Source: Fictibacillus enclensis (GTDB lineage: Bacteria > Bacillota > Bacilli > Bacillales > Fictibacillaceae). Taken from it: a stretch of DNA of 64,000 nt. The stretch lies in the NCBI RefSeq assembly GCF_001457035.1, contig NZ_KQ758619.1, positions 124,001-188,000 of the forward strand. Direction: 5' to 3'. A model generated the notes under the pieces. That model was not told the origin of the DNA, ran no database searches, and saw nothing but the letters and a program-made list of their open reading frames with translations. How positions within the stretch are numbered: the stretch's first letter is position 1; every line of letters starts with the position of its first letter. Positions 45,120 through 56,014 of the stretch are shown in pieces. The translations under genes were made by a program, and so were the position numbers.

Positions 45120-46412
45120 ATGGAACAAAAGCTTATGATAGAAGGGGGTTATCCCCTAGAAGGAACCGTTCATATCAGCGGAGCCAAAAACAGTGCAGTC
45201 GCGTTAATCCCAGCTACCATTCTTGCAGAATCCCAAGTCATCATAGATCAGCTGCCTAATATATCAGATGTTCACTTACTTAGAGCATTGCTTGAAGAAA
45301 TCGGCGGTGAAGCCGAACTCGATGAGAATAATACATTAACGGTCAATCCGGAAAAAATGATTGCCATGCCATTGCCCAATGGCAAGGTAAAGAAGCTGAG
45401 GGCTTCTTATTATTTGATGGGTGCGATGCTGGGCCGGTTTAAAAAAGCGGTTATCGGCCTGCCTGGAGGATGCAACCTGGGGCCAAGACCGATTGACCAG
45501 CATATTAAAGGTTTTGAAGCATTGGGCGCAAAAGTGACCAATGAACAAGGAGCCATCTACCTACGTGCAGATGAACTTATTGGAGCACGAATCTATTTAG
45601 ATGTGGTGAGTGTTGGCGCAACGATTAATATTATGCTGGCGGCTGTAAGGGCCAAAGGACAGACGATTATTGAGAATGCGGCTAAGGAACCGGAAATTAT
45701 CGATGTGGCCACTCTGCTTACAAGCATGGGAGCCAAAATAAAAGGTGCGGGTACAGATGTAATCCGGATCGATGGTGTCGATCACCTGCATGGCTGCCGC
45801 CATTCCATTATTCCGGACCGCATTGAGGCAGGCACTTACATGATCCTGGCTGCAGCAGTCGGCCAGCAGGTTGTTATAGACAATGTCATTCCTCTGCATT
45901 TGGAATCATTGATTGCCAAACTTCGCGAAATGGGTATACAGATTGAAACGAAAGACGATCAGGTTCTGATTCATAGCAGTAAAGGGCCGTTGAAAAGTGT
46001 CGACATTAAAACGCTGGTCTATCCTGGTTTCCCTACGGATCTTCAACAGCCGTTCACTTCGCTCCTTACTAAGGCTGAAGGAACAAGCCTTGTAACGGAT
46101 ACGATTTATTCTGCACGATTTAAGCATATTGATGAATTGCGAAGAATGGGTGCGAATGTAAAAGTAGAAGGCCGGTCTGCCATTATTAATGGACAAGCCC
46201 GTCTTGAGGGAGCGAAGGTAAAAGCCAGCGACCTGAGAGCGGGAGCTGCCCTTGTGGTTGCAGGCCTCATGGCGGAAGGCATCACAGAGGTTTCCGGACT
46301 TGAACATATCGACCGCGGTTATGAGTCTCTTGTTGATAAGCTGGTTGGACTCGGTGCGAAAATTTGGCGCGAGAATCTTGATATCGAGGAACTTGAAGAA
46401 GTCGAAAAATAA
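45120..46412 (+). CDS. murA2: UDP-GlcNAc 1-carboxyvinyltransferase 2
   Basis: 430 residues of the EPSP synthase fold. It adds enolpyruvate to UDP-GlcNAc, the first committed step of peptidoglycan synthesis. [13 protein letters not shown] holds the conserved Lys-Asn pair; the fosfomycin-binding Cys lies in [31 protein letters not shown] is the C-terminal family block. By position between tal and glpX it is the second Bacillus paralogue (murAB/murZ). Confidence 0.95.
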
Positions 46413-46475
46413 GGGCGGATTTCGGTCGAAATTCCGTCCTGCACTGTTATTTGTCTCAGGCCGTTCAATCTCTAA
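46413..46475 (+). other. murA2-repeat junction with weak hairpin
   Basis: GGCGGATTTCG can pair imperfectly with CGAAATTCCGTCC (about 46415-46440) as a weak terminator of murA2. The sequence then runs into a degenerate right arm (TCTCT...) of a lost repeat unit. Confidence 0.4.
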
Positions 46476-46507
46476 CCGTTCACTTCAGCATTTCTTTGTC
46501 CAGCTTC

Positions 46508-46603
46508 AGTGAACAGAGACTCGGTCATTTCACTCTTTCACGCAACACAAAAAGCGTGTTGATGTTCAAGAGTTCCAATGCCGTTCGTCTCTATCCGTTC
46601 ACT
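46508..46603 (-). ncRNA. Repeat unit 1 stem-loop (candidate structured RNA)
   Basis: Five stacked helices as listed for the array. Minus strand is assigned because, across units, the three isolated non-compensated changes become G-U pairs on the minus strand and C-A mismatches on the plus strand. No promoter was identified. Confidence 0.5.
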
Positions 46604-46626
46604 TCAGCATTTCTTTGTTCAGCTTC

Positions 46627-46722
46627 AATGGCCAAAAGCTCGATTGTTTCACTCTCTCACAAAATACAAAAAGCGTATTTGTGTTCAAGAGTTCCAACAC
46701 TTCTTGCTTTTGAGCGGCCATC
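46627..46722 (-). ncRNA. Repeat unit 2 stem-loop (covarying variant)
   Basis: Arms become ATGGCC/GGCCAT, AAAAGC/GCTTTT (4-nt bulge kept), TGTT/AACA, ACTCT/AGAGT and AAATAC/GTATTT; loop AAAAAGC is unchanged. Compared with unit 1, paired bases change together at three positions in helix 1, three in helix 2, two in helix 3 and two in the terminal helix. Confidence 0.55.
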
Positions 46723-46745
46723 TCAGCATTTCATTGTCCAGCTTC

Positions 46746-46841
46746 AGTGAACAGAGACTCGGTCATTTCACTCTTTCACGCAACACAAAAAGCGTGTTGA
46801 TGTTCAAGAGTTCCAATGCCATTCGTCTCTATCCGTTCACT
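46746..46841 (-). ncRNA. Repeat unit 3 stem-loop
   Basis: Almost identical to unit 1. One change inside the stem (G to A at 46821 on plus) makes a G-U pair on the minus strand. Confidence 0.5.
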
Positions 46842-46890
46842 TCAGCATTTCAAATTACTGTAAGCGTTTAACAAGGGGGATAATTTTACA

Positions 46891-47859
46891 ATGGAACGTA
46901 GTTTATCAATGGAACTAGTACGTGTAACAGAAGCTGCTGCACTCGCTTCCGCCCGATGGATGGGACGGGGTGTCAAGGATGAGGCAGATGATGCAGCAAC
47001 AACAGCCATGCGGGATGTTTTTGATACAGTCCCTATGAAGGGAACGGTTGTTATTGGAGAGGGAGAAATGGATGAAGCTCCAATGCTGTATATCGGTGAA
47101 AAACTAGGTACGGGTTATGGACCGCGTGTGGATGTGGCCGTTGACCCACTGGAAGGAACAAACATTGTGGCTTCCGGTACCTGGAATGCGCTGGCTGTTT
47201 TGGCTGTAGCAGACCATGGAAACCTGCTGCATGCACCGGATATGTATATGGATAAGATTGCAGTGGGTCCTGAAGCTGTGGGGATGATTGACATCAATGC
47301 CCCAACCATCGACAACTTGAGAGCGGTAGCGAAAGCCCGTAATAAGGATGTCGAGGATTTGGTGGCCATCGTTCTAAACCGTCCACGACATGAAAAAGTC
47401 ATTCAGGAAATCAGAGAAGCGGGAGCAAGGATCAAGCTGATTTCCGACGGCGATGTCGCCGCGGCCATTAATACGGCGTTTGAAGGAACAGGTGTTGATA
47501 TTTTATTCGGTTCCGGAGGTGCACCTGAAGGAGTTATCGCTGCTGTCGCGCTTAAATGCCTTGGTGGAGAATTGCAAGGCAAATTGCTCCCTCAGGATGA
47601 AGCAGAGCTGGAGCGTTGCCGGAAAATGGGGATTACTGACATTGATAAGGTACTCCGCATGGAAGACCTCGTAAAGGGCGATGATGCGATATTTGCTGCA
47701 ACGGGTGTAACGGACGGGGAGCTTTTAAAAGGCGTCCAGTTTAAAGGAACCGTCGGAACAACACATTCCGTTGTTATGCGTGCAAAATCGGGTACCGTCC
47801 GCTTTATTGATGGCAGACACAGTCTCAAAAAGAAACCAGACCTTGTTATAAAACCATAA
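46891..47859 (+). CDS. glpX: Class II fructose-1,6-bisphosphatase
   Basis: 322 residues of the GlpX family. Metal and substrate motifs: [46 protein letters not shown] (the inositol phosphatase-like DPLEGT) and [10 protein letters not shown]. Dephosphorylates fructose-1,6-bisphosphate in gluconeogenesis. Corresponds to B. subtilis ywjI, next to murAB and rho. ATG after AAGGGGGAT; the repeat array ends about 45 bp upstream. Confidence 0.95.
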
Positions 47860-49503: not shown

Positions 49504-49566
49504 ACTGCTATGTGCTTATTTTAACTCTGGATTCACAGGATTCAGGGCAGAAGGAGTTGAGAACGA

Positions 49567-55900: not shown

Positions 55901-55909
55901 AAAATAAAT

Positions 55910-56001
55910 CTTATCCAGAGTGGTGGAGGGACTGGCCCTATGAAACCCGGCAACCCGTTTGAAGGTGCTAAATCCAGCAGGAACACATCCTGAAAGATAA
56001 G
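55910..56001 (+). promoter_or_regulatory. SAM-I riboswitch (S-box)
   Basis: Closing stem CTTATC (55910-55915)/GATAAG (55996-56001), core GAGGGACTGGCCCTATGAAA followed by CCCGGCAACC, then GGTGCTAAATCC and CAGCAGGA: the full S-box core. With SAM bound, the downstream terminator forms and the following operon is off. Such elements control methionine, cysteine and sulfur genes in Bacillaceae. Confidence 0.96.
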
Positions 56002-56014
56002 ATTGAAGCGGCGG

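What the first reader, a model, noticed from the sequence alone, without database searches (positions are those of the whole stretch)
46476..46860. 119-bp tandem units whose long stem-loops covary: a candidate new structured RNA
Three units of exactly 119 bp lie between murA2 and glpX. Aligning unit 2 with unit 1 base by base, substitutions fall as pairs: in helix 1 AGTGAAC/GTTCACT becomes AATGGCC/GGCCATC (three pairs exchanged), helix 2 AGAGAC/GTCTCT becomes AAAAGC/GCTTTT (three), helix 3 CATT/AATG becomes TGTT/AACA (two), and the terminal helix CAACAC/GTGTTG becomes AAATAC/GTATTT (two). The loop AAAAAGC, a 4-nt bulge and the 23-nt linker are kept. About ten compensatory double changes are hard to explain without selection on folding. 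A caveat is that the outer CGG/CCG extension of helix 3 is lost in unit 2.
Basis: seen in the sequence. Interest (0 to 1): 0.9.

Follow-up and report, generated by a model that had tools for sequence, protein, structure and literature searches.

The report
Mobile hairpin repeat of Bacillus-like bacteria
The three repeated units are one site of a scattered DNA repeat of Bacillus-like bacteria whose copies keep one elaborate hairpin although their sequences differ, which fits a small mobile element better than a new RNA gene.

Summary
The array (46460-46851) has three 117-nt units at a 119-bp period plus a truncated copy. Units 1 and 2 differ by nine two-sided and two one-sided changes, all of which keep the pair. 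The structured strand is the window minus strand. The reading as a new RNA gene is half right. This is one site of a dispersed family: 38 model hits in this genome, 52 of 60 near genomes, 46 of 299 in the class, 2 of 199 in a phylum sample, both of the own order. Across genera 35 of 36 pairs covary. Rfam has no match. Unit number differs between sister species, and identical units lie at unrelated sites in one relative. Resident copies change in stems about as fast as in loops, so folding is probably selected when the element propagates. Elements sit at gene 3' ends with strict polarity. The mobiliser is unknown; a REP-type transposase was considered, with mixed results. Transcription was not testable.

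The parts
46735..46851 (-). unit 1 in reading order of the structured strand (117 nt, 121.5 bits)
   Evidence: covariance-model hit
46616..46732 (-). middle unit (115.2 bits); differs from the other two by 9 two-sided and 2 one-sided pair changes
46497..46613 (-). last unit in reading order (121.2 bits); all 36 pairs identical to the unit at 46735-46851
46460..46494 (-). truncated trailing copy: the 5' part of a unit only
   Evidence: sequence and TRF end point; trailing GAAAAGC-like starts follow the last unit in 95 of 169 array sites
46733..46734 (-). 2-nt linker between units
   Evidence: gap between hits; linkers listed
46614..46615 (-). 2-nt linker between units
   Evidence: gap between hits; linkers listed
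   Evidence: 430-aa ORF; name not tested by me
   Evidence: 322-aa ORF; name not tested by me

Best explanation
The array is one site of a non-autonomous, probably mobile structured repeat of Bacillales. The standard unit (about 112-124 nt) starts GAAAAGC and ends GGAC/T on one strand and folds into a long rod of five helices with conserved G/A-rich internal loops. Shown here: the family, the fold, the spread, differences in unit number at the same site between sister species, and the position at gene 3' ends. Inferred: a trans-acting machinery recognises the folded strand (RNA or single-stranded DNA) and copies it to new sites at gene 3' ends; local tandem growth then adds units, often with a short copy of the bases before the first unit as linker; folding is kept because well-folded copies are the ones propagated, and resident copies then drift.
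For: Dispersal: 38 hits in the own genome, 81 and at least 137 in two relatives; four identical 120-nt units at unrelated sites of G023. Gain and loss: of 14 own-genome sites with matched spans in a 93-96% similar relative, 11 differ by 80 nt or more in at least one; alleles with a solo 5' half, mini-stems or almost nothing. Fold: 35 of 36 pairs with two-sided changes, 0 of 500 shuffles as high. Folded strand: G-U over A-C cells 63:4, 39:17 in the wide set without the invariant G-U pair. Resident drift: stem rate 0.052 against 59 of 891 unpaired. Position: same-direction gene pairs antisense 9:1, 24:8, 15:4, 26:6; stop codons at -6..+1 of the 5' end in 50 of 97.
Against: No mobiliser was identified. 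No target duplication at sites without a trailing copy (4 of 61, shuffled mean 3.8). In-place units show more two-sided changes than independence predicts (11 against 1.9), so some selection or arm-to-arm exchange also acts on residents. The exact stop-codon junctions are not explained by a generic mobile element. Clean empty sites are few; gain was not separated from loss.
Confidence: 0.68

Rival explanations
1. A host-useful structured RNA (sRNA or 3'-UTR element) that is dispersed because many genes use it.
For: Covariation and G-U over A-C asymmetry; exact junction with the stop codon of sense genes in 50 of 97 cases; excess of two-sided changes in place.
Against: Mostly antisense in same-direction gene pairs; unit number varies between sister species; stems drift nearly like loops in place; copy number from 0 to at least 137 between relatives.
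Confidence: 0.12
2. REP-like system: a single-copy RAYT-type HUH transposase mobilises the element as single-stranded DNA.
For: Such proteins are common in the relatives; the six tested hit only the REP-associated tyrosine transposase model, 60-76 bits; in the class they occur in 23 of 46 element-bearing and 13 of 253 element-free genomes (counted by hand).
Against: All six score below the model cut-off of 80 bits. A credible element hit lies within 3 kb of 1 of 20 RAYT-type genes. No match at 1e-10 in the own genome, G003, G004, and only an IS200-type and a broken match in G023, which has at least 137 copies and identical ones. Half of the element-bearing class genomes lack it. The association may be shared ancestry.
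Confidence: 0.1
3. The paired changes come from arm-to-arm copying in a DNA hairpin (quasi-palindrome correction) and slippage, without selection on folding.
For: Arrays grow and shrink, and linkers often repeat the 5' flank; two-sided changes exceed expectation in place.
Against: It should erase mismatches, yet G/A-G/A loops stay (30 of 30, 25 of 30, 30 of 30 in the own genome), and it predicts no G-U over A-C bias. It does not explain dispersal.
Confidence: 0.05
4. A transcription terminator acting in the direction of the neighbouring genes (the complement strand ends in a stem followed by ATTTCTTTG or CTTTTC).
For: Orientation bias; sequence of the complement strand.
Against: Pairing is better kept on the other strand; separate terminator-like hairpins lie on the element's 3' side in 108 of 184 sites (59 on the 5' side; shuffled about 40 and 57).
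Confidence: 0.05

Closest known systems
BOX repeats of Streptococcus pneumoniae (PMC3049150, abstract and outline seen)
   Same: Small interspersed repeats with extensive secondary structure, judged parasitic and slow to move by that abstract; modular tandem middle part (recalled)
   Different: Other host group, no sequence comparison made; here the whole unit is repeated and its 5' end meets stop codons
REP elements and RAYT transposases (PMC2817692, passages seen)
   Same: Intergenic palindromic repeats with compensatory changes; RAYT-type proteins present in many relatives
   Different: REPs are 20-40 bp with a GT(A/G)G head and flank the rayt gene; here 112-124 nt, no such head, and 1 of 20 RAYT-type genes near an element
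bcr1 of the Bacillus cereus group (recalled; named in passages of PMC3733652 and PMC2267715)
   Same: Bacillus intergenic repeat of similar size, filed as a MITE
   Different: Not compared by sequence; bcr1 is described as specific to the B. cereus group (title in a reference list)
Bhal-1 stem-loop family of Bacillus halodurans (PMC2267715, abstract, passages and one section seen)
   Same: Intergenic stem-loop family of a Bacillales genome, 74 bp, 36 copies
   Different: Sequence not seen, so identity with part of this family is open
Mobile/repeat sequence candidates of a 50-genome ncRNA study (PMC11109978, passages seen)
   Same: Same class of object: covarying multi-copy motif with inconsistent orientation, RNA or DNA form open
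   Different: The passages seen name no Bacillus motif; the 250 candidates were not compared

Membership tests
Any Rfam 15 family | match at gathering score, or at E up to 5, in the array | tested here: not met
   no match at the array
REP/RAYT system | transposase gene flanked by the repeats | tested here: not met
   1 of 20 RAYT-type loci with a credible hit within 3 kb
REP/RAYT system | 20-40 bp palindrome with GT(A/G)G head | tested here: not met
   unit 112-124 nt starting GAAAAGC; definition from passages of PMC2817692
REP/RAYT system | transposase present in repeat-bearing genomes | tested here: inconclusive
   23 of 46 element-bearing class genomes; none found at 1e-10 in the own genome
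MITE of a DDE transposase | fixed target-site duplication | tested here: not met
   sites without a trailing copy 4 of 61 with 3 or more bases, shuffled mean 3.8
MITE of a DDE transposase | terminal inverted repeats reaching the ends | tested here: not met
   outermost bases GAAAA and GGAC/T do not pair in the model; inner arms do
RNA-mediated element with a reverse transcriptase in the genome | RVT_1 protein in element-bearing genomes | tested here: not met
   21 of 60; none in the own genome nor in G042 with 81 copies
BOX | boxA-boxB(n)-boxC sequence modules | not tested
   no BOX sequence was compared
bcr1 | bcr1 sequence | not tested
   no bcr1 sequence was compared
Expressed structured RNA | transcript of the folded strand | not testable with these tools
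   no expression data held

The most novel reading that the evidence does not exclude
A mobile element whose folded strand is inserted by an unknown RNA- or single-strand-DNA-level machinery that reads gene ends: its 5' end lands at the stop codon of a sense gene, or its 3' end faces the end of an opposite-strand gene, without target duplication, and it then multiplies in tandem while copying a few flanking bases. This would be a new way of choosing a harmless insertion site.
Probability: 0.3. Interest if true: 0.85.

Novelty: new variant of a known kind. Interest (0 to 1): 0.62.

Why it matters
Many Bacillales genomes carry this structured repeat, which Rfam 15 does not hold and which my ten paper searches did not turn up. 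It breaks assemblies: four contigs of relative G004 end inside a unit. It also imitates an RNA gene: covariation is extreme between lineages but weak in resident copies, so covariation alone does not prove a host RNA. If the stop-codon and gene-end polarity reflects insertion rather than survival, it is a directly testable case of a mobile element that reads gene ends.

Tried and rejected
Rfam at gathering score and at E up to 5: nothing at the array. Viral contigs by one exact pattern: 0. Plasmids and phages by blastn with one G023 unit plus tail: no match. Ten paper searches gave general repeat papers and no description of this family that I recognised; only the top rows of each list were shown and most subscription papers are not held, so absence from print is not shown. 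Promoter before the element: the 5' flanks listed show no shared -10 box by eye; no formal test. Replication or transcription as cause of the orientation bias: in G006 strand follows the replichore, but so do most genes; of 4 head-on tandem sites 3 run against and 1 with the fork, so undecided. Target duplication: seen only where a trailing copy follows, so I read it as tandem growth.

Limits and dropped rows. Gene strands and stops come from a simple ORF finder, not annotation. In some searches distances of 0-3 bp can be open frames cut at the element; rechecks true stop codons. One search placed 43 of 45 G006 sites; one search had both genes for 28 of 30 G023 loci. One search used 150 of the 195 hits (the aligned ones), 40 own-genome and the G042 hits. 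Searches dropped sites preceded by another copy and used 22 of 45 G006 sites (mostly the longer, better hits) and 28 of 30 G023 loci. Copy counts are lower bounds where the first look capped scored candidates (12, 18, 61 or 150 per genome).

Full report
What is there. The array at 46460-46851 has three units at a 119-bp period plus a truncated copy. On the window minus strand each unit begins GAAATGCTGA and ends GCTGRACA. Between the first and the middle unit 9 of 36 pairs change on both sides and still pair, 2 change on one side and still pair, and none break; the first and third units are identical at every pair. Both strands fold far better than shuffles, the minus strand more so.

A family, not a locus. 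BLASTN found 19 places in the own genome; a covariance model found 38 units at 18 sites. The same model hits 52 of 60 near genomes, own included, and 23 of 30 genera. A wider model hits 46 of 299 genomes of the class, 26 of 119 genera, and 2 of 199 of a phylum sample, the own genome and one of its order. Matches per genome run from 0 to 137. One exact pattern gave nothing in viral contigs, and one unit gave nothing in phages or plasmids.

Structure. In 30 own-genome units 23 of 33 predicted pairs have two-sided changes. In 45 distinct units from 23 loci of other genera 35 of 36 pairs do, and none of 500 shuffles reaches any of the five measures; the combined set of 60 distinct units gives the same. 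Wobble pairs tell the strand: G-U against A-C cells are 63 to 4 in the own-genome set (36 to 4 without the pair that is nearly always G-U, taking its 27 cells), 68 to 13 in the other-genus set with that pair included, and 39 to 17 in the combined set without it. So the bias is strong at home and moderate elsewhere. G/A-G/A internal loops sit at four places, in 30, 25, 30 and 12 of 30 own-genome units; in the combined set the outer one is GA/GA in 42 of 62 and the one inside helix 2 in 53 of 62. Some copies carry extra side hairpins (locus L019, L101).

It multiplies and changes. At the murA2-glpX site G003 has one unit plus a truncated copy, G002 one unit with an inserted hairpin plus a truncated copy, and G005 only a truncated 5' part; two G004 contigs end there, one of them inside a unit, the G006 hit is an odd 149 nt, and I did not resolve G001. 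For 14 of the other 17 own-genome sites I had matched spans in G003 or G004; 11 of the 14 differ by 80 nt or more in at least one of them, and L088, L089 and L094 do not. In the eight site pairs that I aligned, relatives show solo 5' halves (L311, L312), outer-stem minis (L315, L332), a 10-nt remnant (L304), almost nothing (L329), no recognisable unit (L306), or one unit instead of two (L314). Linkers inside arrays tend to repeat the bases before the first unit: 35 of 142 share 3 or more, shuffled mean 8.9, maximum 19. Sites without a trailing copy show no such duplication (4 of 61, shuffled mean 3.8), sites with one do (18 of 89, mean 5.2).

Selection acts mainly elsewhere. In 20 comparisons of units at the same site (identity 0.87 or more), stems change at 0.052 per base and unpaired columns at 59 of 891 (0.066); 51 pairs change on one side and 11 on both, against 1.9 expected if independent. 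Resident copies are thus nearly free to change, with a compensatory excess, while covariation between lineages is extreme. I infer that folding is selected when a copy is propagated. The lack of any detected RAYT-type gene in G000, G003 and G004 would fit decay after loss of a mobiliser, but this is one clade.

Polarity. Where both flanking genes run the same way, the structured strand is antisense in 9 of 10 sites of G000, 24 of 32 of G006, 15 of 19 of G023 and 26 of 32 of G042. Of 187 sites examined, 97 have a sense reading frame of 90 or more codons ending nearby; its stop codon ends at -6 to +1 of the element's first base in 50, at -20 to -7 in 1, and further off or inside in the rest. Of 106 opposite-strand stops facing the 3' end none is that close and 75 are over 60 bp away. 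Terminator-like hairpins occur within 150 bp on the 3' side in 108 of 184 sites and on the 5' side in 59, shuffled about 40 and 57. One reading covers both classes: the 3' end points at the end of a gene. Whether this is target choice or survival is open.

Which enzyme. Reverse transcriptases are patchy (21 of 60). Small HUH proteins related to REP-associated tyrosine transposases are common, usually one per genome in the own family, and hit only that NCBIfam model, below its cut-off. Across the class they go with the element (23 of 46 against 13 of 253), but they are not flanked by it (1 of 20), half of the element-bearing genomes lack them, and so do the own genome and, as an intact gene at that threshold, G023. 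I keep this as a rival.

Novelty. Not in Rfam and not recognised in ten paper searches. It works most like BOX, REP and bcr1; defining features of REP/RAYT and of DDE-type MITEs were tested and not met. A Bacillus intergenic repeat of this look is familiar to me from memory, without a name or source, so some earlier mention is likely.

Noticed in passing
window 49525-49556 and 55908-56003 (+): Known RNAs: an L31-Firmicutes ribosomal-protein leader and a SAM riboswitch, both over their gathering scores.
   Followed up: no
window 46885-46919: A separate two-copy tandem duplication (period 18) across the start of the gene at 46891.
   Followed up: no
window 46413-46439: Inverted repeat right after the stop of the gene ending at 46412, between it and the array; looks like a terminator stem without a T-run (read).
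   Followed up: no
L160-L163 and other G023 loci, after the unit: A conserved AT-rich 3' tail of about 36 nt ending TTTATACTTTCTT(T/A)AC follows many units in G023; similar tails show in a few named loci.
   Followed up: partly
G042 loci such as L382, L373, L368: Many units in G042 are followed by another conserved module with two small hairpins of the type CACGTCCTGTG.
   Followed up: no
L387-L406: RAYT-type HUH proteins in Bacillales relatives, 186-289 aa as read, not flanked by the element; their own targets are unknown.
   Followed up: partly
L315, L332, L082:4143-4199: Mini-derivatives that keep little more than the outer stem, as if the rod had been deleted at its base.
   Followed up: no
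G023: Nine RVT_1 matches, most of them partial, in the genome with at least 137 element copies.
   Followed up: no
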